Shown here in pieces: positions 1 to 17,748 of a stretch of DNA of 64,000 nt (the stretch's first letter is position 1; each line of letters opens with the position of its first letter). The DNA lies in NCBI GenBank assembly GCA_017654735.1, contig JADPYG010000089.1, positions 10,001-74,000 on the forward strand, given 5' to 3'. Source of the DNA: Vishniacozyma victoriae (lineage: Eukaryota; Basidiomycota; Tremellomycetes; Tremellales; Bulleribasidiaceae). Position numbers and translations under genes: made by a program. The notes under the pieces were generated by a model. The model was not told the origin of the DNA, made no database searches, and saw nothing but the letters and a program-made list of their open reading frames with translations.

Positions 1-544
1 AAATATCTTTGGTGAGCTTTGGCAAGAATGAGCTAAGGGCATTGAGATGCCGCTAGATCAAATGTTGGTCACGGTAGCGTGCAGGGAAGTTATGAGAGAA
101 GTAGGTGGGCGATAATGATTGTATAACGGTACTATATGAAGATAGGTTAAGCTACGGGTGTATAACAATAGGTTACTATAATTAACAACAATCAGAGATC
201 ACTGAGGTTCTTCGAGCCTCGGCGACCTTCCTTATATATCCTTCAGAGTCCATTGGTAGCATGTGGTCGCTTGCTGACCTATATGCTCCATTCGGCGAAC
301 AATAAGGTGAGAACAATAAGACGTTTGAACTGAGTTTTGCCAAGCAAGCTTGACCCTGAGGAACAATAGATGAATTATCGATAAGTTCTTATTGTTCTTC
401 GAGAACAATAAGATTTCGTCGAGGTTGGCCGAAAGTGGAATAAGTTGGCGTAAGTTGGTTTGGCGCGTTATCCGGCTAGTGTGGATTGAGATGTGAACGC
501 GCGTAGTTGAACTTATTCGGATGTTGGCGAGAATTGGGTCTATT
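1..544. other. AT-rich stretch with GAACAATAAG repeats, no gene seen
   Basis: No convincing coding frame. It holds several copies of the 10-mer GAACAATAAG (297-306, 311-320, 403-412), a partial copy at 361-370 and an inverted copy at 388-397. The inverted copy and the one at 403-412 form a hairpin with 10-bp arms and a 5-nt loop. The stretch lies just past the last recognisable part of the decayed integrase-like gene, so it may be what is left of that element's end. This is inference. Confidence 0.4.
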
Positions 545-1335
545 CAGGTGATGGTCGATATGATTCCGTGACAGGATCCCATAGATTCCAAAGCCATAGG
601 CAGAGAGCTTGTCATGACCGTCAATTGACCATTGCTCATTTGGACCTGCAGAAAAGAGCTGTGTTCAATGAATCTTAGCTGCACCTGGGCGCCGCTGAGC
701 AAGAGACTCAGGATCAAAGTCCCGCATGGTGCTATAGACATGCGCTCTGTGAGTTAGCTAATTTGATGCAAAGACACATACCGGGATACCAAGATGCCTT
801 GCCTAGCCAAGTGATGTTTCATACCTCAATACCCAAGGCTTCAAGCTGGATCCTCATCAAGACAATTGATGATGAGCTGCTCAAGATGTCCTGCTGAGAT
901 AGATTGCTTCCGTCCAGTTCCCACATTCAGAGCTCTGGTGAGGCGGAAGAATGAGGATTTGCTTCTGCAAGATCAGCTTTGACAATCATACATGTACGTC
1001 CCCTATCCACATTGCATCACCATGCTCCTGCTTCAGCCGCGCTCTGATGGCTTCCCAACTAGTCATTCCCTGATTGTAGTATCCTTGTAGAATAAGTCCT
1101 AATTGAGGTGTTGCAGCTGCTGCGTCTTTCAGCAATCTAGATGTACAGCAAGGTTTGTACACTTACGCTTAGGACGTTTCCCATTGCGCCCAAACTGATT
1201 GTTATTCACTCTAACTGCTGCAGCAGGAGCAAGGTCTTCCTCAGGATCTTCCTCAAATTCCACCTCCTCATCTTGAAACAGCGTGTTATCAATCTCCTCC
1301 GGGGCGTAATTCTCAGGTGATGATGGCGCATCCAT
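545..1335 (-). pseudogene. decayed integrase/transposase-like gene (DDE core relic)
   Basis: On the minus strand an acidic N-terminus begins at the ATG at 1335 (MDAPSSPENY). It is followed after a plausible intron by a segment reading YYNQGMTSWEAIRARLKQEH, then HLEQLIINCLDEDPA, MKHHLARQGILVSR, MRDFDPESLAQRRPG and GPNEQWSIDGHDKLSAYGF. This order (helical DNA-binding-like N-terminus, then a WxxDGHDKL block) resembles the basidiomycete proteins with an rve-type integrase core as I remember them. The D of DGHD would be the first catalytic aspartate. The frame changes around 810-850, where stops separate DEDPA from MKHHLA, and I could not find the later catalytic D and E residues towards position 1. 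It therefore looks like a truncated, frameshifted relic. Family assignment is from memory and moderate at best; an unusual intron pattern could explain part of the frame changes. Confidence 0.5.
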
Positions 1336-1693: not shown

Positions 1694-4153
1694 ATGTCTC
1701 AGACTACCAACTCCCAGTGCGCCAACTGTGACAAACAGTACTTGGCTGCGCACATAGTCAGCCAGCTTTGTCACAAATGCCTTGATGTGGAGCAGGCGGA
1801 GCTTCAAAACGCGCCCAAGAATGAAATTGACAAAATCAAGGTAGGTGAGACTGTAGCTTTGCATACTGATACCTCTCAGGCTCGACCCCAATGTCAGACC
1901 TGCGGTCTTCATGGCTACTCAATCTTTGCTAATGAGAAGTCCTCAACTGTCTGCCGCAGGTGTTTTGACAAAGGTAGGTCCCATCATGCCTAGCGCCCCA
2001 GTCTGATCACGCAGGTGAACGCAGTGCTACCTTTGCATCTATAGAGTCTCAAGCTCAACTTGATTGCACTGAGTCCCGCTTGAGAGCCAACACACATGCT
2101 CCATCCTCCCCAATCAGTGCTGCATCAATTGAGGAGCACTGGTTCCAGAGGAAGGACGCATTCAACAAGGGACTTGGCCATCCGCCTACCTTGACCTCAA
2201 AGATTGTATTCTGTAAGTCTATCTGATCACAGCAACTGATCTGGCAGAATCAAAGGCAAGGTTCACTGTGTGGGACAAAACCGCTGCGCCAGAGAGCTTC
2301 CAGCTTGCTTTCAACACGCCATTCAGTGAAGTCATTGCTCAAGGACTTGCCAAAGTTACAGAGGCTTGGATGTCTGAGGGTGCGCAAAGGAAGTATGGTC
2401 ATGGATTTGGCTAGTAAGTAATGCTCCGCCCCAAGATCTAGTGCTGAGGTCTCAGTTACAATCCCAAGTTTGCCTTGATTAATGGCGCGGGTCAAACCTC
2501 AGTGGTCAATGTTGATGCCTTGGACCCAGACATGACTTTGTTTGCATTCTGGAATACCCAATGTGTGCAGAAAAGACTGTACTGTCAACCCAAGGATGTC
2601 AAGGCGGGATCACTTCATCTTGCCATGATGTTCATCATCTTGGATCCAGAGCAGAAAACAGTGGGTGATTGGATCAGTTATGATGCTGACGCACAGTCCT
2701 CTGAGCTTGACTCTCTGCAACGCTTTACAAAGCCAGCTCAAGAGCGCCATCAGAGCCGCGGTCCTTACCAACGCCCATCAGGCTTGACCAAATCAAGCTT
2801 TGGACTCATGCCACCACCAAGCCTTGGTCCCCACCGCTCTCGAAAAGGAAAGACTCCTGAGCCAAGCCCCAGCAGCCCACCAGCACCCTCAAACCTAGTA
2901 TCAGGCCAAGTCTTCACTCCAATCCCTGTCCGCGCTTCTTCTCTCAGTAGGAATGGTGCGTCAATTCTCAACCTGACTTAGCGCTTACTTATAGCAATGA
3001 CCAATCTCTTTTCCTCCAGCGGAGCAAACCCTATGCCAGCCATGAAGCACATCCGCTTCACCATCACCCAATTCTCAATTGGACCAGATGGTGTAATTGA
3101 GATTTTGCCTTTGCCAGATGTCCACATTGGTCACCTCAGTCAATCTCCAATTGGAAGTGGTGGTATGAAGTCTGCATATAAGGTCAGTTAAAAGGGTTTC
3201 CTTGGCAGAATGCTGATGCTAAGCTCTGCTTCAACAATGACCACCTCATTGCCAAGCAACACTACCGCCTTGACTCCATGAACGCCAATACTGCTCCGCC
3301 CCTTACCCACCAGATGAACCATGATCTCTTGGTCCTTGAATGCAAGCAAGCCATCCAACTTCAGATCTTGGTTGAACAGTTCAACACCAAACTTTCATCA
3401 GTCTACGCCAAGGGCCGCAACTCTGGCACTCCAGTCCTCAGATACACATCAAGCTACCTCATTGTTGAGACTGATGGTGCAGGCGCAAGTGATCCCAAGC
3501 TGTTCCAGAGCTGGATGGTGGAACCCACTCTGGTTGGTGAAGAGATCAAGGTGACAGGCTCCAGCAACTTCAGTCCGCCCAAGAAATGTACTGTATTGGA
3601 GCAGGAAGTGCATGCTTTCCATCATTTTGTGCTGGACATTTCGCTTGCATCTGGTAGAGAGTCTGCAATGATCCCAGCAGATGTTCAAGGTGAGCAGAGA
3701 ACCTAGAGTTGTGCTAATGTGTGCAGGCTTCCTTGTGAAACCATCCAAAGGCGAGAAGAATCAAGCTCTGGTCTTCCACCTATTTGATGTTATGACACAC
3801 ACGCAGGTTCACATATCTGATCCAGCTGACCAAGCAGTGTCCATGGCATGTCAGGCTTGGGAGATGGCGGATCACCATTGATCAATCAATTCCAGTATCA
3901 GCATCACAATAACTGTGCCGCTACATGCCGGAAGCTTGACTTGATTGCGCGTAATGAATGGCAGGCTCTCCCTGCCAGCAAGGAGGTATCATGGTGGTGT
4001 CAAGCCATTATACAGGCCCATCACAATAGTGAGGCCATCAGGAATGCCAAAGAACTCTCTGCGCAGCAAGCCCCCCTTGAGACAATGGAAGAAGAGGATG
4101 GAGAGATTGAGGCCGGAGGAGAGGAGGAAGGCAGCGGAAACCACTCCGATTGA
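1694..4153 (+). CDS. alpha-kinase-type protein with two zinc ribbons; frame disturbed, possibly a pseudogene
   Basis: Multi-exon gene starting MSQTTNSQCANC. The N-terminus has two zinc-ribbon-like modules, CANC...CHKC and CQTC...CRRC. A Pro/Ser-rich linker follows (about 2760-2960), then an alpha-kinase-like domain: glycine loop GSGGMKSAYK (3158-3183), putative ATP-binding lysine in HLIAKQHY, and a core HHFVLDIS...DVQG. The C-terminal zinc motif is FQYQHHNNCAATCRKLDL (His-x3-Cys-x3-Cys). Order and motifs fit the alpha-kinase family (EF2K/MHCK type), which is expanded in basidiomycetes. Two places do not read cleanly. The obvious intron at 2213-2248 creates a TAA at its junction. Near 3830-3848 the frame must shift to go from THTQVHISDPADQ to GLGDGG, with no canonical intron there. 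Either the gene is broken or it uses splice sites I cannot see. The C-terminus is acidic (EEEDGEIEAGGEEE). Confidence 0.6.
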
Positions 4154-4426
4154 GGTGATGCCATGCATGACGCCTGCTAGTATGTACTGTGACCTTCTGA
4201 TATGTAGTGTAGTCCTGGAACCTAATATATGTATGCATGATGTGTTGTTAAGTGTATGTATGCATTGTGGAAAAGCAGCTAACAAGATGTGGAATCAGAT
4301 TCCAAAATAAATTCCGGCCTGGAACTGATGGGCCACGGTAACCATCAGGCACCATCTTTTGCGTTTGGAGTATATATCCCGCTGAACGCGTTGGTACGCC
4401 CGTCATGCATCGTGCAGCTAGATCTG

Positions 4427-4871
4427 ATGGCTCCACTCAAATTTGCGTTTGCAACTGGTAAGTGACGCTGTCCTCCCGAGAGCAGGGAGCTGACAAAGTA
4501 GGGTGCCTAACGTTTCGGGCGGACTGGTGGTCTCGAAAATACCCCAACAAACATCTCACTTGCTGGAATACAACGTACGGCTAGCTCAAATTGCCGAGGA
4601 GAGTGGATTCGAGTTTGCTTTGACTCAAATCCGTTTTCTAGCTGGCTATGGTGCCAAAGAGCAGCATGAGGTAAGTCTCGCATCCAATCAAAGCTGAACA
4701 CACCAGAGCGTCTCCTTCTCTCACGCTATTCTCGTCAAAACAGAACGTCTTCAGGTCATTGCAGCCATTTTACCCGGACCATGGAATCCGACCATCGCTG
4801 CCAAAACCCTAGCCAGCATCAGTTTATACACCAAGTTCCGCACCTTCCATCTTGTGTTGTGCTGGGTATGA
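4427..4871 (+). pseudogene. N-terminal half of SfnG-like FMN-dependent monooxygenase, cut by inversion
   Basis: Exons 4427-4457, 4501-about 4672 and about 4708-4835 give the start of a bacterial-luciferase-like, reduced-flavin-dependent monooxygenase of the dimethylsulfone monooxygenase (SfnG)/alkanesulfonate monooxygenase group. Landmarks are VPNVSGGLVVSKI, EESGFEFALTQIRF, ESVSFSHAILV and LPGPWNPTIAAKTLASIS. Homology stops after the codon at 4833-4835; the next bases belong to the Baeyer-Villiger gene in reverse, and the frame ends at a TGA at 4869-4871. The rest of the enzyme lies on the other strand at 10418-11441, starting with the very next residues of the family (VAVNVVSGWFK). Members of this group oxidise small sulfones or sulfonates with reduced flavin and O2; the true substrate here is unknown. 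As it stands only about 125 residues of the barrel remain, so it should be inactive. Confidence 0.85.
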
Positions 4872-5839
4872 GCGTGGAAGAGCTAGCGATCACAGCAGGA
4901 CTCACATCGAGAAACAATCTCGTTCGTTTGTAAAGCAGCCAGCCGGGGATCCACTTGAAGCAAAACAGTTCCAATCTAGTAAACTTGGGATTTGCTGACG
5001 ATCAGCCCTGACCTGATCTGTCACTTACGCTTTGGAAAGTAATATCCTCCCAACCTTATGAATTGGGTAACATGCGTCCCGGGTAGCTTTGCTATTCCAG
5101 GCTTAAATGAGCTTCTGCCGTTAACTTGTACTCACAATCAATTGAACGGCTGAACTTCCGTTACCAATCACGGCCACTCGCTTATTACTAAATTCCACCG
5201 TCTTGTCCCATCGAAGGTTGTGAAATTTGATGCCTTTGAAAGACTGAAGACCTGGCAATTCGGGAATCTGTGGAGTCGAGAGTGGTCCATTTGCAGATAT
5301 CAAGATATCGGCTTCCAGATTGGTCTCCTCCTTGGTGGCAGAGTCCCATAAAGTCAACGTATGTGTTTGCGACGCGTCAGACCACCTGGATGATTTGTAC
5401 TCCGTATTGAACATGAACGTGTTGTTGAGCCCTTGTCTGATAAGCACCGGTCCAGAAGTTGGCGGCTTACGATACCGGTCAATCAATCCTTCCCAGTACT
5501 CCAGCACTTGTTCCTGAGAAGCATATACGTTCGTCCAGTCATGCTTCAGGTCCGAGTATAGGCTATAGAGATGGATTGGAATGTCGACACCTAATCTCAG
5601 CAATGTTCAACGCCCAATTTCTAGTGCGTTACCGGCTCCGGGCCATGTCAAATCCCGCCATACACCTCCGGGCGAACTAGCTTTTTCAATGACCTATTGA
5701 TTAGTCTTATCCGTGTGATCAGACTGACAGTGATGACTACTCGTCCACCCAGCGCGTCACGTAGTCGTATAGCCTGGGCCAAGCCGGATATCCCAGCGCC
5801 TACGATAGCGACTCGTATTTGTCGCTGATCGGACACCAT
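4836..5839 (-). pseudogene. N-terminal half of a Baeyer-Villiger/flavin monooxygenase, cut by inversion
   Basis: The ATG at 5839 opens RVAIVGAGISGLAQAIRL, the FAD Rossmann motif GxGxxG. After an intron come SSPGGVWRDLTWPGAG and IPIHLYSLYSDLKHDW. The fingerprint FKGIKFHNLRW matches FxGxxxHxxxW, diagnostic of Baeyer-Villiger monooxygenases. The second (NADPH) Rossmann motif VAVIGNGSSAVQLI follows. Further exons read PGIAKLPGTHVTQFIR and KFTRLELFCFKWIPGWLLY, and the last recognisable codons are TRWKVR at about 4850-4836. There homology ends abruptly inside SfnG-like sequence. The continuation (ALEDSLLKYLERTAPAEYL) is on the opposite strand from 11441 on. Such enzymes insert oxygen next to ketones or oxidise heteroatoms using NADPH and FAD. 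The protein made from this half would lack the C-terminal third, so I call it broken. Confidence 0.87.
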
Positions 5840-6385
5840 GTCGAGTGATCACTTGCTAGAAGGTAATTTGGGGTCCAGTGCTGACTTGTTATCCTAGAGC
5901 GATAGACTGGCCGAGATCCAGTCTGGCATATGTTGCCATTTCTTCCAAGACGCAATAGAGACGGTGACTGAAGCTACTAATATGGCGACATGAGACGTTG
6001 AAATCACGTTAAATTGCGCCAAGCGCGTCGCGTCTATATATAATTGATTGATTTCAAATTGGTACTAGCTCCCCGATTGTATTTGTCCTAATCAAAGGGT
6101 GCAGTGCAGGACATGAGTCTAAGCTGGTCTAAGCTTCATGGTCTACACGAGTCTACTGAAGAACCATGATCACCTCACAATAGGCATTTGGTGTAATTGC
6201 GGAAAGAGTGTAGGCGAACGCAGACACGTCCACCCTCCCGTGTTTGATGTTTGTCTTTGAACATCTACCCGCTGCATGGTATGAAACCTCGACCCGCATG
6301 CATGATATCGAGGATTCTAGTTCTACTAACAACTCTCATTGACTCTCGGCATACCTCACTTCCGGCACCTGGCTAATGTTCATGT
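5840..6385. promoter_or_regulatory. upstream region of the Baeyer-Villiger gene and 3' end of the transporter
   Basis: No ORF of note. Near 6115-6160 the short motif GTCTAAGCTGGTCTAAGC is a direct repeat of GTCTAAGC. I see no clear TATA box. Confidence 0.3.
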
Positions 6386-8641
6386 CTACAACGAAGATTT
6401 CAGATCCGTCCCACTATCGTCCGCTGGAGACTCTATACTGAACTCAGAGCTTTGACCCCGGCTTTCTACCTTGCTCTGAGCTGATGACCTTCTGCAAAGG
6501 AGCTGGGTGGCTTTACAAGCGATGTCGGCAAGTGTTCGCCGTCCTTCGATGATTGGTAAGACGGAAACAGCAAAGATAGCCCCAAATGCCCACAACAAAG
6601 AAACGATGACCCATCCTCTGAAGAATGATTTCGAAAAGATGTATCCCGATCCGTACATCGATAGCGGCCAGATGATAAACAAAGCGAGAAACAGGAAGAG
6701 GGTGACTCCCCTAGCCCAATACGCTGCTCGCCTCAATCTTTCGGCATCGTAGGTAGGATCGTTCTTGGCGACATCGTATTCTTGGCCGTTCTCATCAATG
6801 AGACGTACTGCCTTGAGGGTACCCCAGTCGTATCTTGCGTTCTGGAAGATAGATACCGTGATCGTTATCAAGGCTGAAGCGCCGATACCGGCTACACATC
6901 CGTAAAGACAAGGGTCGATAGCGCCGACTGATGTGATCGAGACCTCTCCGCTCAACCTCTGAGCAATTGTGATCCAGACAATAACGGCAACGGCAAATCC
7001 ACCCCAGATACTGGAGACGATGGCGAGGGGCCCTTGTCGAGAGGAGAAGAATGTTCCCACTAGTCCCGGTAGGGCTGATCCCGTGAAGATACCGGTCATA
7101 ATCTAGAACATCAGCAGGATTCCCCGCTTCGACTGGAACTCACATAGATGAAACCAAGATCGATATTGACGCCATGAAGCATCGACGCAAATGCCGCCAT
7201 AAATATGGCAAAGCCAATCACCGCCCACTGGCCTGCCTTCAAGATTTGCTTGTCGGTAGCTTGAGGTCGAAAGTAGGTCTGATAGACGTCGACGGAGATG
7301 ACGGTCGAGACACCAATAAGCTGGGACGATATGGCAGAGGTACAGGACATAAACATGAGTAGGAGGACTGCGCCAGCTCCTCCTGTTCCGGCGATCGTTT
7401 GTGCCGCATAGGGAAGTACCAGACCAGCTCCGATCTCGCTGGTATTCATTCTTCTGGGATAGGTCGGGAAAGCAGGAGTATTCTCGAGGGCGACCGCAAC
7501 GAGTCCCATCGTAGTCGCGAGGGCAAATGGCATGGCGTACCAACTCAACCCTCCAAGGATATATCCAGGGACGGCAGCTGCCGGATCAGCTGCAATCCCT
7601 TTTTGGTGGAAGCTGTTGTCGAGGAATACCACACCGGTGTATTCGAGAATGGACAGTATCGCAAATTTGAGAGCACCAAGGGACCGAATGGTGAGGTAGC
7701 TTCCTTCTTTGGTCGGGGCAGAGAACGAGTTACGGACTTGTGCTTCTCGCAACAAGTCAAACATGCGGTCCGGGCTTCCAATCTGACTTCCTGTAGCGTA
7801 GACCTTGAACCAGAATACCAATATGATGACGAGAATGATGGCGGTATGTAGCTGATATCAGAAACTGATTATGATGGGTGACTCACGTAGTCCGTCAGGA
7901 TTGTAGCTCTTAGACCGCCTCTTGCGGTGTAAGCAGCGACACTGAACGGCAGCAGCCACAAGCTGGTATCATCAGAACAAGCAGGCACTATAAGCCCAAG
8001 ACTCACGATGCGTAGACGCTCATTCCTGTTAAAGCTTCAATTGCTGCGGCACCGCCGATCAGGATGGAGGATACCACCAGCGTATTGGAAGCAAGACTAA
8101 AGAACAAGAACGAGAAGTGAGCAACTCGGCCGTATCAAAGTCGAATGATGTCCAAATAGGTTCGGGCATTTGGGGCTTTTCGTTTTGTTTGCTGGCGAGA
8201 TTAGCAGTACCTCGACGGGATGCCAATCGACTCACAATTGCTAGATTCGAGAATACCATGATCTGGGTGCTGTTACAAGCGGCATAGAAGAATGCACCTG
8301 CAACCCCATACTGATAGGCTACGCTGACACTACTAAGGAGAGTGGTACTGGCATAAGGTTTGGCTACTAAAGAAGAATATACAATCACATACCTCCAGGT
8401 CCAGGACGATATCACGGCGGCGGCTGTCAATCCAGTGCCAATCGATTGTTTGGCAACTGGCGTTAGTGTACCCCCTAGAAATGGACTTGCCTGTAAACTC
8501 TTTGGCATCTTCGACGTTACCACGTTTTCGAAGGATAGTGGTGATGCCTATCATTCCCAAGGCAAATAGAGCACCAAGACCAATCACAACGCCGTATCCG
8601 GCGCCTTGGCTGAGGGGAGCTACAACAATAACGTCAGACAT
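6386..8641 (-). pseudogene. DUR3-like urea/polyamine-type Na+:solute symporter with an in-frame stop
   Basis: Spliced minus-strand exons give a sodium:solute-symporter family protein close to fungal DUR3 urea transporters. It begins SQGAGYGVVIGLGALFALGM, then SIGTGLTAAAVISSWTW, VAYQYGVAGAFFYAACNSTQ, TKRKAPNARTYLDIIRL, ILIGGAAAIEALTGMSVYA, VPGYILGGLSWYAMPFALAT and LLLMFMSCTSAISSQLIGVS, with many hydrophobic segments to the C-terminus. DUR3 proteins import urea or polyamines with a cation. At about 8133-8135 (minus strand) the frame that is correct on both sides contains TGA between DIIRL and YGRVAHF. Relatives have an Arg or similar residue there, so a single C-to-T change would explain it. 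No GT upstream allows an intron to remove the stop without deleting conserved residues. Unless this is a sequencing error, the transporter is truncated early. It lies inside the inverted block and shares a divergent promoter with the MDR gene. Confidence 0.8.
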
Positions 8642-9093
8642 GGTATTCACAACGAGCTGGTCTTCGTATCGAACAGGAAGCTTGATCGTTCTTCAGATGA
8701 TATATACCCGATAGCTAGTCTCAGCAGAGAGCTTCAAAAATGGCGTGCCCTTTGCTGCAAAAGTCGTCACCAAACGTGACTAGCCACATTGATAAACCGC
8801 TGCCGCTATCACCGGGACAACGCGTCCGGTAATCAGGCACTGCGATCAAAGATCTAAGCTAATTTGTTGCCATAGATCTCTTCAAATGCAAAATGTGGCG
8901 TCATCCGAGATATCAATGGAATGCAAATCTCGCCGAGCACGAGGTCCCGTGGTCACCTTCAATGTCGCCATGTTAGCTGCGATGGCGTTTCATGCTCCCC
9001 TAAAGGTCCATGAAGGTGGTGGGGGTAGCCGGAGCTATCTGAGGCGTATCCTGTCAAATCAACGTCAATACCCAAGTCGACTACTCCAGATCA
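8642..9093. promoter_or_regulatory. divergent promoter region, DUR3-like / MDR genes
   Basis: About 450 bp between two divergent starts. It contains short palindromic and AT-rich patches (GATATATACCCGATAGC near 8697-8712 on the transporter side) but no strong repeated element that I recognise. Confidence 0.4.
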
Positions 9094-10379
9094 ATGCCAC
9101 CCATACCCGCTGGCTTCATCCAGCTACTGAGCTCGGCTTCCGAGCCTTGGTCACTACATCGCAATCATCAGCTCCCTGCTTTGGGAGAGGATGAAGTATT
9201 GGTGCGGAACTCGTACGTTGGCTTGAATCCGTTCGACTGGAAAGGGGTCAAGCATCGATTCAGCCTTAAAGCCTTGCCTTCGGTGCTAGGAAGGGACGGA
9301 AGCGGGATCATCGTATCTGTGGGTCCAGCAGTGACAAGGCTCAAGCAAGGAGATAGAGTTAGTCGTTCCGAGGCTCCCGCAAGCTGCGTCACTGACAAGT
9401 CAAGATATGGTTCTGCGCGAATTCGGCTGTACCCAATAGTGGAGCCTTTCAAGAATACTCGGTACACAAGGCAGAGGAAGTGGGTTTGCTTCCTCCGAAT
9501 ATATCACTACGCTCTGGAGCTACACTGGGGACGGGCTTGTTGACCGCTGCCATTGTTCTGTTCAAGTGCTTTCAACTTTCTATCGACAAGCTGCACTCGG
9601 TAAAAGAACGGACAAGAGGTGCCTGGATATTGTACGTTGCAAGGAGGGTATTCCGCTGAGTCTAGCATCGCCTCGGGCTCAGGAAGCACTGGGCAGTATC
9701 TCATACAGCTTTCGAGACTTCTCGGACTTCGTATCATTTGTACCGCCTCAAAGTCAAACCATCAGGTACTCGAAGCACTCGGCGCAGATCTTGTCTTGGA
9801 TCGACACAACTCAGCCCAGAAGATGGTTCAGCAGATCAGGGATATCATGAACGAAGAGGTAATTCTACTCTATACTCCCTGCTGACTGCGTAGGGTGTGC
9901 TCTACGCTGTCGACAATGTGGGTCCTTCCACCGTACAGCTTTGCCGACGGATATTGAATAGTGACCCTGCTTTGCCTGAAGCGCAACTAGTCGCCCTGGC
10001 GGGAAGTCCCAACGGATCACAAGATACTGAGCAACAAATCTCGATCATACCGATCAGCTTCAGCACAACATTCTTCGGCCATCCCAAATTCTCCATCCCC
10101 TTGCAGTTTGCAGTTTGCGCAATGTTGGAGACAAAATTGCTGCGGCCATCACCTTATGAGACCGGCCCAGGCGGGTTGTCTGGGATCAAGGATGCCTTGC
10201 TGCGCCTGGAGATGGGTAAAGTCGGATCGATGAGAAAGTTGATCGTTGACGTCCGAGGCGGGCTTCGGAAGAAGGAGCAGAGGCATGAAGCGACCATCGG
10301 ACCGCAGTTAGTCGGAGTGAAGCGCAAAGCGTCACCGGATGGGGAAGAGCGCAGAACAAGTAAAGCCATTTGCGCGTAG
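9094..10379 (+). CDS. medium-chain dehydrogenase/reductase (zinc-less enoyl reductase/quinone reductase-like)
   Basis: Start ATG at 9094 (MPPIPAGFIQLL). The GroES-like N-terminal domain shows ALGEDEVLVRNSYVGLNPFDW and LGRDGSGIIVSVGPAVTRL. After an intron (about 9357-9403) follow AFQEYSVHKAEEVGLLP and GATLGTGLLTAAIVLF. After a second intron (about 9632-9667) the cofactor-binding Rossmann motif SGSGSTGQYLIQLSRLLG and EALGADLVLDRH appear, then a last exon to the stop at 10379. This is the fungal MDR group that includes ToxD-like trans-enoyl reductases; NADPH is the likely cofactor. The structural-zinc cysteine cluster of alcohol dehydrogenases is not apparent. The frame is intact through three introns. 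It converges on the SfnG-like C-terminal half with only 38 bp between stops. Substrate unknown; the neighbourhood suggests an oxidised intermediate made by the two monooxygenases. Confidence 0.82.
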
Positions 10380-10417
10380 GATGAAGGAGCATGGATGCAT
10401 GCTCATATCTGGATCTG

Positions 10418-11441
10418 CTAGGTGTTTGTCTTGACTCGCTTGCTCCTCCTCTCATCTCCTGCTTTGCTTCCACTTGTTCTCCCCTCGGCCCTTGGCGGGT
10501 AGTTGTCATAGCTCGGCCAGGAGTCTGCATCCCCATTGGCGATTGCCTCTTCTTCATACTTTCTTACCAATGGCATGACTTTTTTGCCAAAGACGGCTAT
10601 GTCGTCTTGCAAGTGTAGGAAAGCGGTCTACGATACTCAACGCTTTGGATGACTGATAGATGAATGACTTACAAGAACCAAGTCAGCCCCAAAGCTCTTG
10701 AGCTGAATGATACGCCGAGCAACCTCTTCTGCCGTCCCGATCAATCCAGTCCGGAACCTTTCGTTGTACTGTACGAGATCCTTGACGCCTGCCGTCGCCC
10801 ACATGCCCTGTCCCTCTTTACTTGATTGACCAGCCTCTTTTACTGCATTTGCAAATTTGGCGAGAGCATTGGTATTGGCACCATTGACGATCTCGTCCAG
10901 CACAGCGTAGGCTTCCTCCTTGGTATCCCGTATGATGACAAAACCACTGAATGTGAGACTCTCTTCTTGCCACCGACTCACTTGATAGCCGTTTTGACCT
11001 GTCTTCCAAGGGCATGGCTCTGTTTTCGAACATCATCAATGTAAAGTTTGAAGGTTTCGTCCGTATTCCCGTTCATGAAGAACCAATCACAATGCTTGGC
11101 CGCCATTTCTTGAGCTGCTACTGAATTACCCCCCATGAATATCAGAATGGGCAAGACTGTCTCTGCTTCTGACTTCAAACTTGACTCAGTGGTAGGCGAA
11201 GCGAGCGGTTTGGGCGAAAGGTTGAATTCGTCATAATTGTAGAACCGGCCCTTGAAGTTGAAGGGGCTCTGCGACCAGATACCGCAAAGACATTGTATAA
11301 ATTCGGACAATTGTTTGTATCGCTCGTCATGCTACACCTCAGCTCTTGCCCTGAAAAGAGACTCACCTCGAGCCACGGCTCGCCGATCAATATGAACTCC
11401 TGTTTGAACCAGCCAGATACAACATTGACTGCTACACAGCG
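10418..11441 (-). pseudogene. C-terminal half of SfnG-like monooxygenase, cut by inversion
   Basis: Minus-strand exons begin at the breakpoint (about 11441) with VAVNVVSGWFKQEFILIGEP. They continue HDERYKQLSEFIQCLCGIW, NFKGRFYNYDEFNLSPKPL, PILIFMGGNSVAAQEMAAKH, FVIIRDTKEEAYAVLDEIV, GTAEEVARRIIQLKSFGAD and FLHLQDDIAVFGKKVMPLV, ending at the stop at 10418. These are the middle and C-terminal blocks of the SfnG/alkanesulfonate monooxygenase barrel, in the right order with ordinary introns. No start codon or promoter exists in front of it now, because the plus-strand neighbour at the breakpoint is the Baeyer-Villiger gene. The N-terminal half is at 4427-4835. No further stops or shifts are seen, which suggests the break is fairly recent. 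The tail is Lys/Arg-rich. Confidence 0.85.
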
Positions 11442-12405
11442 CTCTCGAGGATTCTCTGCTCAAGTACCTGGAAAGAACAGCTCCTGCCGAGTATTTGGAT
11501 GCTCTTCGACCCGATTATCGTGAGTTGATATTGCAAGCGCACCGCTGATCTCAGCTCTCGGGTGCAAACGACCTGCTTTCGATGCCGGCTGGCTTGAATC
11601 GCTGCACCAAGACAATGTCCATCTCACAAATAGTCCCATCAGCAATATCACCGAAGCCGGCATTCAGACTGTCGACGGAACCGAAACCAAGGCCGATATA
11701 ATCGTGTTTGCGACCGGATCAAACGTAGCGGAGCATGGACTCGGTCTCAATATCGGACTCTATGGGGAAGATGGCGTCGAGTTGAGATCTTACTGGAAGA
11801 GCATTGATGGCCCTCAATCATACCTCGGACTATCGGTTCCCAAGTTTCCCAACTACTTCATGGTCGTTGGCCCCAACGCAATCGCCGGGTCCTGGGGTTA
11901 TACAATAGGCAATCAGGTGAGTGAAATGATTCCAATCGACGCTGATCCTAGACCGCAGTGATAGCTCGCCTGGTCAAAGAGATGTACGACAACGATCTCA
12001 ATTCAATACAGCCTCGTGAAGATGTCTTTCACGCACATAACCTCGCTATCCAGCAACAGGTCTCGAACAGCGTGAGTCACTCATGCATACGTATATCTGA
12101 TATCGCAGACCATGGCGAGCAGTAAATGTACCAGCTGGTGGAGAATCACTGGGGGCCGCATATCGGTACCCAGCTCGCTTTCTGCTATTGGCTTGTGGCG
12201 TGCCACCCGCACCACCCGATGGGCAGACTGGCGAGCGGTCCGATTCACTTCTGCTGGACCCCTCGAGGAAGTGCAGATGACTGCAAGACAACGTCGTCGA
12301 GCAATTCAGCGAGCGGTGCTGTGGACCGCTATTGCTGTGGTTGGGGGTTACACGGCAAATTCGGTCAATGCACTGGCTTATATTAGACAGGCCTTCGATC
12401 TGTAG
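11440..12405 (+). pseudogene. C-terminal half of the Baeyer-Villiger monooxygenase, cut by inversion
   Basis: From 11441 the frame reads ALEDSLLKYLERTAPAEYLD and ALRPDY. After an intron (about 11519-11553) come LGCKRPAFDAGWLESLHQDN, then ADIIVFATGSNVAEHGL (the ATG motif of FAD monooxygenases) and NYFMVVGPNAIAGSWGYTIG. Exons after 11915 and 12073 lead to the stop at 12405. It directly continues the half gene at 4836-5839. No start codon or promoter serves it, since the preceding bases are the antisense SfnG-like gene. The C-terminal exon ends in a hydrophobic stretch (VLWTAIAVVGGYTANSVNAL), possibly a membrane-anchoring helix. Frame and splice sites are otherwise intact. Confidence 0.85.
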
Positions 12406-14926
12406 TTTGGCCCAAGAAATGCCGAGTTGACCGCGGATGAGCATGTTGAACATGTAGAAACAGAGGAAGCTGTATAGCGATGCATGGCTATATGCACGTA
12501 CGACTCCAGTTGCGTCTGTTCCACGATTTGCCTTTTTGAAACATCGTTTCCTTCTGAATCGGATGAATGAGCCTGCCATTCAGCTCCTGCCCATTCTTCG
12601 AAGCTTATCAAGCTCACCTGTTGTGCGATGATCGCATACACTGCTACCCTACTGACGTCCAAGAACTTTCCCTAAACCCTCTTATTGGGGCCCGACGTCG
12701 AAGCCTGATAATCTGGTATTGGGTGAATCTTGTCAGGAGAGCGTACCGATTTGCAGTGCGTTGCTTCGAACTTCAGACCAGTATCCCCAGTCGAGGGCAT
12801 CCTCCCCTATCACTCCACCTGCCGGGTAGCGAAGTTTGAAGTTGATGTCGGGATGGTAGGTCGAGTTTATGGGTGACGGTCCCTGATGGCGAGTGTCGAG
12901 CATAGGTAACAAAGATGACGGATTCGCTTGGAATAGCTCAATGCTGGAGTAATGTGGAAGCGCCGACGGGAAATGTGTGGGCTGACAAGAATGCTGAGCA
13001 ATGAAGCCCCTCGAGAAGCCCGGCTGTACCTAGACGTCAGCGAGACAGGCAAATGAATTGCTTACCAATGGGCGACGCAGGGGTCTCACTTCTTCTGTCC
13101 GGCTCTTTCCGTGTTACGGAGATCTAGTCACACTTCTTCACCAGTCCATCCTCTGTAGCACTCGCCGGACCACACACCGCGATCCCTGTTTCCCTTGGCG
13201 CTTTCAAGAGTTTGATTTTCGCCGAGTCGATCAAAGCCGATGGACCGCTGGAGAGACGAGTCAAAAGTGAGGTGGATAGCTAAGCGATGCGAGCTGAGGC
13301 GTTGAGAGGGATCGACCTGTACGTGAGGATTCCGCAAAAGTTTACCATTGACGGAGGTCACCAGGAGTGGTGTGCGCGAAAGATGTTGACCGAGATCATT
13401 GCCGGTTAAGGATGCATCGGACAGAAAGAAATCTCTAAAAGTCAAGTCAGCCTCGGATAGGTGAAGATACTTTCCCTGCTTGGTCGACGTGTCCCCTCGT
13501 TTCCCCTCTGCTCAACCTGCCTGATCTGCAGCCTCATACTCATATTCCCGGTCCCGACCCATCCGTCCATACTTCTTTCGATTCGAGTCCTCCAGGCGCA
13601 CCCATATCCCTTCCCGTCATTCCGAGCCCCAGTGGTGATGACTGCATATCAAGCAAGGATCGGTTAAAACGAAGTAGATGGTTTAGAACGGAGGAGCCAT
13701 TGAGATCGCTTATATAGAGTGGTTCGTGAGTCTAGTTCAAGTGGATGTTGAACACGAGTGGGCGTGGTCCGAGTAAGGTCGAGATGTGGTGGACCGGATC
13801 ATGCGAGATGAGTGAGGTGAGCCGGAATGCGTCGATTAGGCGTCCAATGTTGGCTGGATATCAGCAGAGGACGAAACAATGTGGCTCACCTTCCATGGAC
13901 CGAGTCTTTCCCTCCATCCAAACTATATTCCCCTACTTTCCAAGAAATGAACTAGCCGAGTCGGACGGATAAGAGTTGCGAGCTCTGAGCAAGAGAGGGA
14001 CGAGCCGAGTCGAGGTATGTGTTTGTTATCTTGATCTAGTCGATTCGGATGTATACATTATCTTGGCAGTCGTGACTGGTAGTCAGTCAGCAGCGTTGAT
14101 AAAAGACGTACTTTAAGATCACTCACCGAACAAGCCCACCGAAAAAGTCCCCTCTTCCTGATCCACGAATCTCTTCTAGCAACTTCGGCCTAGCTCCAGA
14201 CCATGTAGGGATGATCATTGGATGACCAGATCAATGAGCATCGAGGAAATCGTGACGGGCATCGACCATTGAGCGATAGGTTGTAGATCACTCAGGGGCT
14301 TGGTAAAGATAGAGATTACAATTGTTGTCGTCGATGAACTACGTAATCAGTACCCATGTCATGAGAGTAGAACTCACTAGTGTTTCTCGCCGTCATGTTG
14401 GTAATAAGAGTATATGGTTCGATATCGGCCTTAGTGACCCGTCAGCCTATCTTCCATCTCCAGGTCACTCTCTAGCATACAGACCGATCAAAAGGCATTT
14501 TTTCAGGAGTGGACTGCGAGACAAGACGATCGTGACAGGCGAAAATCGATAATGCATGAACTGGTAATGAAACTACAGTAACGATACGCAATAGGTTACA
14601 GAGATGTTTGGTGAAACCGACAACGCGTCGAATCCAATGTGGCGGATCCTAGATCCACATCACTAACCGCCCACACCACTAACCCCCTACTAACCCCCTA
14701 ACCCCCTACACCCCCCGAAACGATAAACTCCAAAAAAGTCGGATAAGAGGGATTTCAATGTTTTCGCCCTGAGCCCCACTCTGTTATCTTGTCTTACTTA
14801 ATCAGCGCCCGGTCTTCACATTTACTGCCACTAAACAACGAGACATTAGGCGGCTCGTCAGCTCAGAGCATCGCGATTGGCATCTTCTTCGAGTAAAGTT
14901 TGCATTCACGTCATTCTCGCATTATC
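12406..14926. other. 2.5 kb gene-poor region with telomere-like tract
   Basis: No gene model holds together. On the minus strand around 13660-13130 there is a TATA-like box (CTCTATATAAGC, about 13717), a good intron end (CTGACTTGACTTTTAG, about 13440) and an open stretch DFFLSDASLTGNDLGQHLSR with a possible continuation TGIAVCGPASATEDGLVKK. These may be exons of a small unknown or decayed gene, but exon phases do not join convincingly. The telomere-type repeat at 14679-14710 lies near the right edge. Confidence 0.4.
14679..14710. repeat. interstitial telomere-like repeat (TAACCCCC units)
   Basis: Three TAACCCCC units are seen, the first separated from the others by an extra TAC, within a wider C-rich tract (14655-14717). 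TTAGGGGG is the telomere unit reported for Cryptococcus. The orientation (C-rich strand on plus) is that of a left chromosome end reading inward. Confidence 0.7.
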
Positions 14927-17748
14927 TCAAAGCGCTAGCGTCTCCGATGTGGGTGGTGCCGCAAACTGAGTCTGAAAAGGAGCAGGCGGCCATTCTCCGT
15001 TTGCCTCATACCTGACAACTCGGCTGTGGCTGCCGCTACCCACAACCTCTTCCACATCACCCAATCGCACTACCGCTTCAGTGTTCGGCGGAACTTCGAA
15101 TTCTACTTTCAATTGATCAGAGGATAGGGACCAGGATACCGCCGCCTTGCCGTATGGTGTAATCGTGTGTGCGGTAGCTTGGGTCACTGTGCCTCCTGGG
15201 AGAGGTTGAATGAGGAAGCGTTTATACCCGGGCTCGAGGGGCTTGAGGCCAGCGACCGTGCTGTGCAGGAAGCTAGCCACGGCTCCTAGGGCGTAGTGAT
15301 TGAACGACGTCATCTCCCCTGGCTACAGATTAGTGCGGAAGTCCAAAATGCAGTGAAGGTGACTGACGTTGATGGAGCCGTCAGGCAAGAGACTGTCCCA
15401 TCTTTCCCAGATAGTGGATGCGCCCATAGTAACTGGGTACAACCAGCTCGGACATCCCTTCTCCTGCAACATCCTATATGCGACTTGTAGATGCCCAGCC
15501 TCGACCAGGGCATTCAAGATGCCAGGGGTGCCCGCAAATCCGGTAGCGATCCGGAAGCTACCTTTCCTTGCTAGCCGTATAAGCCTCTCTGCAGCTCCCT
15601 GTATCTGGTGATCATCTAACAATTTGAACTGGAACGCCAGACAGTATGCGGTTTGGGTGTCGCTCGAGAGCCGACCGGAAGGGGTGAGGTATTCGTGCTG
15701 GAATGCTTTTCGTAATTTGGCATGTTCCCTCGCGTACCTTTCGTGTTCGGACAACATGCCTAGAATTTTGGCTACATTCGAGGCAGTGCCAACAACGGCT
15801 ACGAGGTACGCGTCGGCAACCAAAAACTGGTCCGTCAGACCTGCTCCTGGATCGTCAGGAGGAGCTCGTGGGTCGAGCCTTGATGTAAGCGTTCGCAACC
15901 CCCAGCAGACCAAATGATCTCACCAGTCGGAAAGTTGAAATCCATCTCGAGGGTTGTGCCACAGGCCATTACTACCCCTTTTGATTCCTTTGTCCAGCCA
16001 AGTAGTGATACTAGTCCACATCTCCTCGAGGATCAAGGTCGATCCGTATGCGAGGTGTAGGTCTTTTGGGGTGATGACAGCAACGTCACCCTGATACAGT
16101 CAGCCTGGCTCTTGGTACTCCTCGGAAGTCCTCACCCAGACAGCTTGAGCAATAGGACCTCCACCGAATGCGCTCAGCGTATCGGGCACTACAAGAGGAA
16201 CAATGCCGTCCGAATCTTTGAGTTGCTCTTCCGAGAGGTCATGTAGCCAGTTTGCCAGGAAACCGGAGGTGTCGTATAAGAATGATGCCGTCGGTGCGAA
16301 CGCTTGCAGATCGCCTGTCCAGCCAAGTCTGATCTCAGCATAGCACACGTAGCGATATCACAAGCCCACCTCTCGTCTCGTTGCGGACAGTCTGTTGGTA
16401 GTCCTACGAAATTGCCACGAAGTCCCCACACCACGTTTTGGTGTAGTTTGTTGATCAAGTCGTGTGAGCAAGAAAAGTCGCCGATACGTTCCATGTCGGA
16501 ATGTACGACTACGGCCTCGAAATTGTTCATGTAGTCGTCCAGAATACTAAGGGGTCCACTCACTTCACAAAACCTAAATCCGTGTGTTGTGAAAGCCGGT
16601 TGCCATTGGGTCAATGGTTTCTTCCCCAGATAGATCTTGTCGGTGGCTTTCGCGGATCGTAAAGGTCGAGTCCCGAGTTCTCCCTTGTCCAATACTTCAG
16701 CGAACCGTAGAATAAGACAGTCATTGGCAGACTTGCTTGCTGGGACGTTCATGACCCTGACCCATCCGACCAAGTTCTGACCAAAGTCGATGATCTTTTT
16801 GTGGGAAGGAGTCGAGAGTAAAGATTTTGGCCTGAGGACCTCTGTCTCGCGGATGGGGGGAGCCTCGGGAGCGATCAATGACGTAGATTTCGGAAGGGTA
16901 ATGACTTTGGTCGATCGCCATTCCGTATGAGATAGGCTCGCGTCGAACACTTCACCGTCGTACAGGGCGGACTCGAGAAGCTGACCATAGCTCCATTCCC
17001 ACCTTTCGTCGGTGAAGGCGACCGCCTGCCCGTCGTGTTCAAGTTGGAGCTGGACACCAATCTCAGCACCCCAGATATTGCGACGCTGCTCGGCCCAAGT
17101 CAAGCGACCGCTATACCATCCCTCCCCTACAACTACCTCGATGACGTTATCTCCGTCCACCAAAACGCCCTCCTCGATTACATATGTCTGATAATGAAGG
17201 CGATGATTGTAGGATTGCCAGCCTGGAGCGAGGACATGATCGCCAATACGCTTGCCGTTGACCTTGATCTGGTACACCCCTAGAGCAGTTGCGTAGATAC
17301 GGCTTCGTCCAGTCCCCAGATTTATTGATACAGTCTTACGAGTGTAAAATGGACGCTTGGGTGCATTGGCGGGAGGAGTGATATCAGGAGCTATGACCAA
17401 CGCTGTCCAATCTTCGCGATCGAGGAGAGCGGCTTCTAAGGTCTCGGTGAAAGAATCCGTCCACTCGGAATCGCCCTTGGCTCGGACGCTGACCTGGACT
17501 ACCTCCCTAGATTTCAAAGGCTGCGCGTCCTTTGGCCAGGGGACTTCGACATTGTTTCTTGTGTCTTCGTCGTATTTGGTGATTTCGTCGCCTCGTCGCA
17601 GGGTAATCTCAAAGGCACTCTGGATCCATCCTTGGGCCGTTTGATGGTCTTGCTCGTATCTCCAGGACAAAGACGGGCGAGCCTGACCTATACCGATAGG
17701 GCTGGCGTTACGACCAAATGTCAACTTGCTGATACGTGGTGCCGCCAT
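14927..17748 (-). CDS. alpha-L-rhamnosidase, glycoside hydrolase family 78
   Basis: Start ATG at 17748 (MAAPRISKLTFGRN); a long first exon and several short introns give about 860 residues ending at 14927. N-terminal beta-sandwich domains contain ATALGVYQIKVNGKRIGDHV, LAPGWQSYNHRLHYQTY and the block FGQNLVGWVRV. The (alpha/alpha)6 catalytic part begins GLRGNFVGLPTDCPQRDERL and continues GWTGDLQAFAPTASFLYD after an intron; DERLGWTGD is the GH78 catalytic-acid region. Then YPVTMGASTIWERWDSLLPD (the WERWD motif) and SFNHYALGAVASFLH follow, and a C-terminal beta domain. These match bacterial- and fungal-type GH78 enzymes that release terminal L-rhamnose. No signal peptide is evident, so it may act inside the cell on imported rhamnosides, with the divergent sugar porter at 18501 as natural partner. 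Confidence in the family is high. Confidence 0.92.

What the first reader, a model, noticed from the sequence alone, without database searches (positions are those of the whole stretch)
4836..11440. A 6.6 kb inversion that cuts two monooxygenase genes at once
Seen directly: the SfnG-like gene runs on plus to 4835 and resumes on minus at 11441. The Baeyer-Villiger gene runs on minus down to 4836 and resumes on plus at 11440/11441. Each half is the exact complement of the other along the family consensus (TLASIS... then VAVNVVSGWFK; TRWKVR then ALEDSLLKYL). One inversion restores both frames to within 1-2 bases. Remaining exons have no other stops, so the event looks recent. It silences both flavin enzymes with one double break and places the transporter and MDR gene in reverse orientation.
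Basis: partly seen in the sequence, partly recalled or inferred. Interest (0 to 1): 0.9.

Follow-up and report, generated by a model that had tools for sequence, protein, structure and literature searches.

The report
Small inversion breaks two fungal enzymes
In a gene cluster probably near a chromosome end of a fungus, one flipped 6.6 kb piece of DNA appears to cut two enzyme genes in half at once, and a transporter gene inside it carries a stop signal of its own, so this looks like ordinary, recent decay of an optional pathway.

Summary
An SfnG-type monooxygenase gene and a Baeyer-Villiger-type (BVMO) gene are each split into 5' and 3' pieces on opposite strands, meeting in reciprocal pairs at 4835/4836 and 11440/11441. 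One balanced 6.6 kb inversion explains this best. No second copy of SfnG, BVMO or the transporter, and no uninverted allele, was found in the held assembly.

(2) The DUR3-type transporter gene inside the inversion has an in-frame TGA where 31 of 33 homologs have Arg. (3) SfnG exon 1 is probably damaged too. So there are at least two lesions, probably three, and the inversion need not have come first.

No inverted repeat lies at the breakpoints, which suggests breakage and end joining. 'Recent' is supported: the pieces still look like constrained protein. An assembly error cannot be excluded without reads. Gene-breaking rearrangements near chromosome ends are known in fungi; interest is modest.

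The parts
4427..4835 (+). SfnG-type FMNH2-dependent monooxygenase, 5' piece (exon 1 from 4427, to 4457 if the consensus donor is used; exons 4502-4670 and 4707-4835); ends at breakpoint 1
   Evidence: TIGR04021 positions 2-101, E 6.4e-43; introns; 78% identical to the Uapishka_1 protein P0001 over the piece
4835..4836 (.). Breakpoint 1: SfnG 5' piece abuts BVMO 5' piece with no base between
   Evidence: sequence; BVMO coding sequence short by about 19-25 nt against its closest homologs
4836..5839 (-). Baeyer-Villiger/FMO-type monooxygenase, 5' piece (ATG at 5839, seven exons)
   Evidence: PF00743 E 8.4e-11 (first 233 residues of an earlier model); spliced reading without stops
6386..8641 (-). 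DUR3-type sodium:solute (urea) transporter gene inside the inverted segment, seven exons; nonsense codon after residue 127 of about 670
   Evidence: 70-79% identity in the best 20 rows; spliced reading with one internal stop
8135..8137 (-). In-frame TGA in the DUR3-type gene
   Evidence: column is Arg in 31 of 33 homologs aligned, gap in 2
9094..10379 (+). Medium-chain dehydrogenase/reductase (MDR), four exons, 389 aa, open throughout
   Evidence: PF08240 and PF00107; best PDB match is the LovC enoyl reductase; open spliced frame
10418..11440 (-). SfnG-type monooxygenase, 3' piece (exons 11440-11367, 11331-10982, 10946-10673, 10627-10418 with stop)
   Evidence: TIGR04021 positions 108-349, E 1e-94; frames; stop read from the sequence
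11440..11441 (.). Breakpoint 2: SfnG 3' piece abuts BVMO 3' piece; a 6-base palindrome (AGCGCT) spans it
   Evidence: sequence; SfnG coding sequence 1 nt short against homologs
11441..12405 (+). Baeyer-Villiger/FMO-type monooxygenase, 3' piece (exons 11441-11519, 11555-11916, 11952-12071, 12109-12405)
   Evidence: 46-65% identical to the 3' part of the six named fungal homologs printed; open spliced frame to a stop

Best explanation
A double break in a metabolic gene cluster, probably near a chromosome end, was repaired by end joining with the 6.6 kb piece between the breaks turned round. One break fell inside an SfnG-type monooxygenase gene (1 nt net loss), the other inside a Baeyer-Villiger-type monooxygenase gene (about 19-25 nt lost). 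Shown: the pieces, their strands, their reciprocal abutment, the shortfalls against homologs, no second copy found, and the nonsense codon in the inverted transporter gene. Inferred: that it was one inversion, that repair was by non-homologous end joining, that both proteins are now non-functional stubs, and that the cluster as a whole is being lost. The order of the lesions is not known.
For: Split profile matches on opposite strands for SfnG; BVMO pieces on opposite strands. Reciprocal junctions with 0 and 5 nt between pieces. Homologs hold both pieces in one protein: 118 for SfnG and 118 for BVMO aligned to both. In Uapishka_1 both proteins are listed on one contig each with length 33,035 bp. 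No inverted repeat lies at the two breakpoints: the longest exact inverted match within 150 bases of both is 8 nt, and 138 of 200 random pairs of sites reach 8 or more. Pieces look recently constrained: BVMO departs at 2 of 83 and DUR3 at 6 of 182 strongly conserved columns, within the range of other members. No internal stop in 2,829 nt of pieces. Independent nonsense codon in DUR3.
Against: No reads and no sister strain could be examined. The two small losses at the junctions also fit a contig placed backwards in assembly. The gene order before the inversion was not seen in any relative. No DUR3 row named for Uapishka_1 or with that contig length is among the 120 listed of 800, so the four-gene cluster may not be ancestral. 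A simple 1-nt loss at the SfnG junction would leave a residue other than the Arg that 120 of 120 homologs have, so the repair there was probably less simple. Short loops occur in 6 of 118 rows at the BVMO site, so part of the BVMO shortfall could be natural. Both Uapishka_1 proteins are marked partial and the BVMO one lacks a stretch of its 5' half.
Confidence: 0.8

Rival explanations
1. Assembly error: a 6.6 kb contig was placed in reverse between its neighbours and the ends were trimmed; the real genes are whole.
For: The arrangement is balanced and each junction lacks some bases, as a reversed contig would give. No reads available.
Against: No N in the window. No inverted repeat at the breakpoints that would mislead an assembler. 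By reasoning, one chimeric read gives one false junction, not two matching ones. An independent lesion inside the segment (TGA in DUR3) fits a decaying locus.
Confidence: 0.12
2. The cluster was already dead, for example through the transporter nonsense codon or the SfnG exon-1 change, and the inversion is a later neutral event. This is compatible with the best explanation and differs only in the order of events.
For: TGA in DUR3. Loss of the conserved Trp at the exon 1/intron 1 border of SfnG, where only a non-consensus donor keeps the frame.
Against: The order of lesions cannot be read from one genome. Lesions are few, so all look recent.
Confidence: 0.45
3. A switch: the segment flips back and forth and turns both genes on and off.
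For: Both genes are interrupted by one segment.
Against: No inverted repeats at the ends; bases are missing at both junctions, so a flip back would not give the homologs' frames.
Confidence: 0.01

Closest known systems
Gene-breaking structural rearrangements near chromosome ends in fungi (Fusarium graminearum survey, PMC11152077; abstract and passages seen)
   Same: In that survey 71.3% of inversions include at least one gene or have a breakpoint overlapping a gene; rearrangements are enriched 3.3-fold within 1 Mb of chromosome ends; some breakpoints fall inside coding sequences
   Different: Here both breakpoints lie in coding exons of two genes of one cluster, seen in a single genome without a comparison strain
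Inversions made by breakage and non-homologous end joining (Drosophila mojavensis, PMC3355041; passages seen)
   Same: Attributed to breakage and end joining, without need of repeats
   Different: The two inversions so explained there carry inverted duplications from staggered breaks; here there is a small loss instead
Dimethylsulfone monooxygenase SfnG (TIGR04021)
   Same: Both pieces match the model in order
   Different: Split gene; neither piece alone reaches the curated cut-off of 382.95 bits (317.8 and 147.5). A review of fungal sulfur sources says that the FMNH2-dependent monooxygenase family is conserved in fungi but yet to be characterised (PMC5857272, passages seen)

Membership tests
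Balanced chromosomal inversion | Both junctions join the outside of one site to the inside of the other, with strands reversed | tested here: met
   Strands and abutment of the four pieces
Balanced chromosomal inversion | Uninverted order present in a relative or sister strain | tested here: inconclusive
   Homologous proteins hold both pieces; Uapishka_1 has both with equal contig length; no DNA order seen
Inversion by recombination between inverted repeats | Inverted repeats at the two ends | tested here: not met
   Longest inverted match 8 nt, as at random sites. One search shows 25 of 33 inverted pairs; a few short ones flank the segment at a distance (such as 14 nt at 3955 and 12569, and 14 nt at 86% at 4475 and 11549), none at the breakpoints
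Inversion by non-homologous end joining | Little or no homology, small losses or gains at junctions | tested here: met
   1 nt and about 19-25 nt short; no long match
SfnG (TIGR04021 equivalog) | Score above curated cut-off for the whole protein | tested here: not met
   Pieces score 317.8 and 147.5 against 382.95; scored only in pieces because the gene is split
SfnG (TIGR04021 equivalog) | Oxidises dimethylsulfone with FMNH2 | not testable with these tools
   none
Baeyer-Villiger/flavin-containing monooxygenase | FMO-like profile PF00743 above cut-off | tested here: met
   5' piece 41.4 bits against 22; the 3' piece, tested in a partial early model, matched no family
Baeyer-Villiger/flavin-containing monooxygenase | Baeyer-Villiger chemistry and substrate | not testable with these tools
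DUR3-type transporter | Full-length relatives of the SSS family (PF00474) | tested here: met
   Best 20 rows all carry PF00474, 70-79% identity over 89-99% of the query; several are named DUR3-urea permease

The most novel reading that the evidence does not exclude
An optional cluster near a chromosome end (two flavin monooxygenases, a reductase, a transporter) is being lost in this fungus by several independent recent hits within a short time, which would point to selection against the pathway, with one inversion removing two enzymes at a stroke while sister strains keep it whole.
Probability: 0.12. Interest if true: 0.45.

Novelty: new member of a known kind. Interest (0 to 1): 0.22.

Why it matters
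It is a clear example of how one double break can remove two steps of a fungal gene cluster, and a warning that automated gene finding might report short false genes here. It also points to an uncharacterised fungal SfnG-type enzyme that seems linked to a BVMO-type enzyme in a second genome, which could be tested for use of organic sulfur. As a mechanism it is ordinary.

Tried and rejected
Rejected: flip-flop switch (no inverted repeats at the ends, bases missing at both junctions). Not found: an uninverted second allele in the same assembly (single matches) or further copies of SfnG, BVMO and DUR3 (these searches score only the best candidates, and at least 10,000 bases of the genome read N). 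The MDR gene was not searched for copies.

Corrected on the way: the first BVMO model kept part of one intron as coding and began one exon too late. Searches used that version or pieces of it, so the BVMO gap counts rest on it, although the errors lie more than 20 residues from the junction. Searches used the corrected version. In one search SfnG gave 35 of 179 departures (second highest of 121 rows), which says little because most of the named homologs are bacterial; the Uapishka_1 protein has 35 of 181.

Led nowhere: the ribosomal RNA family search meant to help name the species (machine busy, same request repeated as the message advised, not answered). The first 10,000 bases of the contig read all N (on it gave nothing). 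Paper searches for Uapishka gave nothing relevant. Searches on fungal inversions, fungal dimethylsulfone monooxygenase, BVMO clusters, inversions breaking two genes and fungal sulfur sources were seen as listings; from them four papers were opened by passages only. One search was an error of mine (term too short), mended; that paper (PMC11185503) is not used as evidence. The script stopped at its last print line; those figures were computed.
Full report
What the window is. The window lies at bases 10001-74000 of a 1.25 Mb contig of an 11.6 Mb, 17-contig genome held without a name. The introns modelled here are 34-47 nt long. The best SfnG relative is a Tremellales protein (67% identity) and the two best BVMO relatives are a Leucosporidium and a Tremellales protein, so the host is probably a basidiomycete of the Tremellales kind; that is inference, not a species name. 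A stretch of about 75 bases near window position 500 recurs at six other places; two of them are shown to lie near contig ends (C13:1587; C12:1242307 of 1,245,840), for the other four the contig lengths were not seen. With the window 10 kb from its own contig end, the locus is probably near a chromosome end.

The split genes. The SfnG 5' piece on the plus strand matches dimethylsulfone monooxygenase model TIGR04021 from position 2 to 101 (E 6.4e-43), and the 3' piece on the minus strand matches 108 to 349 (E 1e-94). The BVMO 5' piece on the minus strand matches PF00743 (E 8.4e-11); the 3' piece gave no Pfam match in the partial early form tested, but aligns with 46-65% identity to the 3' parts of the six named fungal homologs printed. 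At 4835/4836 the two 5' pieces meet with nothing between; at 11440/11441 the two 3' pieces meet. Such reciprocal fusion at both ends is what one inversion of 4836-11440 gives and what two independent breaks would not.

How exact. Of 118 homologs to which both SfnG pieces align, 117 have two residues between the pieces and 1 has three. The window has 5 nt there. Those two residues are Gly-Arg in 120 of 120 rows of the alignment; the letters left in the window do not spell Arg next to the 3' piece, and a 6-base palindrome (AGCGCT) lies on the junction, so some filler or further change is likely there. For BVMO, the stretch between two landmarks is 15-19 residues in 27 of 27 homologs aligned (15-17 in 11, 19 in 16) and 8 residues plus 2 nt in the window, a shortfall of about 19-25 nt against the 11. 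In the wider set the same gap ranges from -4 to 47 residues over 118 rows; 14 of the 16 rows most like the 5' piece, down to the Uapishka_1 protein, have 7-9, and 6 of the 118 have 5 or fewer.

Other lesions. The DUR3-type transporter gene inside the inversion has an in-frame TGA after residue 127; that column is Arg in 31 of 33 homologs aligned and a gap in 2. In SfnG exon 1 the consensus donor at 4458 reads out of frame; only a non-consensus donor four bases further keeps the frame, at the cost of a Trp found in 115 of 120 homologs. This second point is probable, not proven. The first DUR3 intron begins GC, not GT, which may be natural or a further change. The MDR gene is open over its 389 residues. 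So two lesions are clear (inversion, DUR3 stop) and a third is probable.

Age. No internal stop interrupts 2,829 nt of the four monooxygenase pieces. If decay were neutral and no small indel is counted, that bounds neutral divergence since loss at about 2.5% (95%); with 0.10 indels per substitution at about 0.7%. The pieces measured leave out SfnG exon 1 and its probable lesion. BVMO departs from strongly conserved columns at 2 of 83 places (rank 12 of 28) and DUR3 at 6 of 182 (rank 6 of 34), within the range of other members. So loss is recent against the roughly 40% protein difference from the nearest BVMO relatives.

Mechanism. No inverted repeat lies at the ends: the longest exact inverted match within 150 bases of the two breakpoints is 8 nt; among 200 random pairs of sites 138 have 8 or more. 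One search shows the 25 longest of 33 inverted pairs in 3800-12700; a few short ones flank the segment at a distance, none sits at the breakpoints. Breakage and end joining is the simplest route. The SfnG stub would read 11 foreign residues past the junction before a stop, and the BVMO stub 28. The SfnG stub lacks most of the enzyme and the BVMO stub about half, so loss of function is the likely result; this is inference.

Relatives. In Tremellales sp. Uapishka_1 the SfnG and the BVMO homolog are both given with a longest contig of 33,035 bp, which strongly suggests one contig. Both are marked partial, and the BVMO protein lacks a stretch in its 5' half. No DUR3 row with that name or contig length is among the 120 listed of 800. 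In Vanrija albida the two sit on records of different length. The DNA of none of these could be read, so gene order before the inversion remains inferred.

Standing. Gene-breaking rearrangements near chromosome ends are reported in fungi (PMC11152077, abstract and passages), and inversions attributed to end joining are reported in flies (PMC3355041, passages). The finding is a sound, ordinary example. An assembly error remains the main rival and needs reads.

Noticed in passing
window 6386-8641: In a tree of 34 rows that I picked (33 of the 120 proteins listed, plus the window), the DUR3-type protein is sister to a clade of 12 ascomycete proteins (support 99/99), while the other basidiomycete rows branch outside. 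This hints at transfer between a basidiomycete of this kind and ascomycetes; a deeper fork is weakly supported and the window's end branch is long.
   Followed up: partly
window 500-580: Short repeat of about 75 bases with six further matches in the genome, two of them shown to lie near contig ends; the first 10,000 bases of the contig read N.
   Followed up: partly
window 8457-8490: The first intron of the DUR3-type gene begins GC instead of GT; natural minor type or a further lesion.
   Followed up: no
window 6386-8641: Besides the stop, the transporter has Gln where 30 of 33 homologs have Arg (residue 54; 3 gaps) and Ile where 32 of 33 have Asn (residue 433; 1 gap).
   Followed up: no
window 3278-3706: Open frame with a weak alpha-kinase match (E 2.5e-06), perhaps an exon of a larger gene.
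   Followed up: no
window 14927-17748: Alpha-L-rhamnosidase domains in order over three open frames next to the cluster; the stretches between the frames were not modelled.
   Followed up: no
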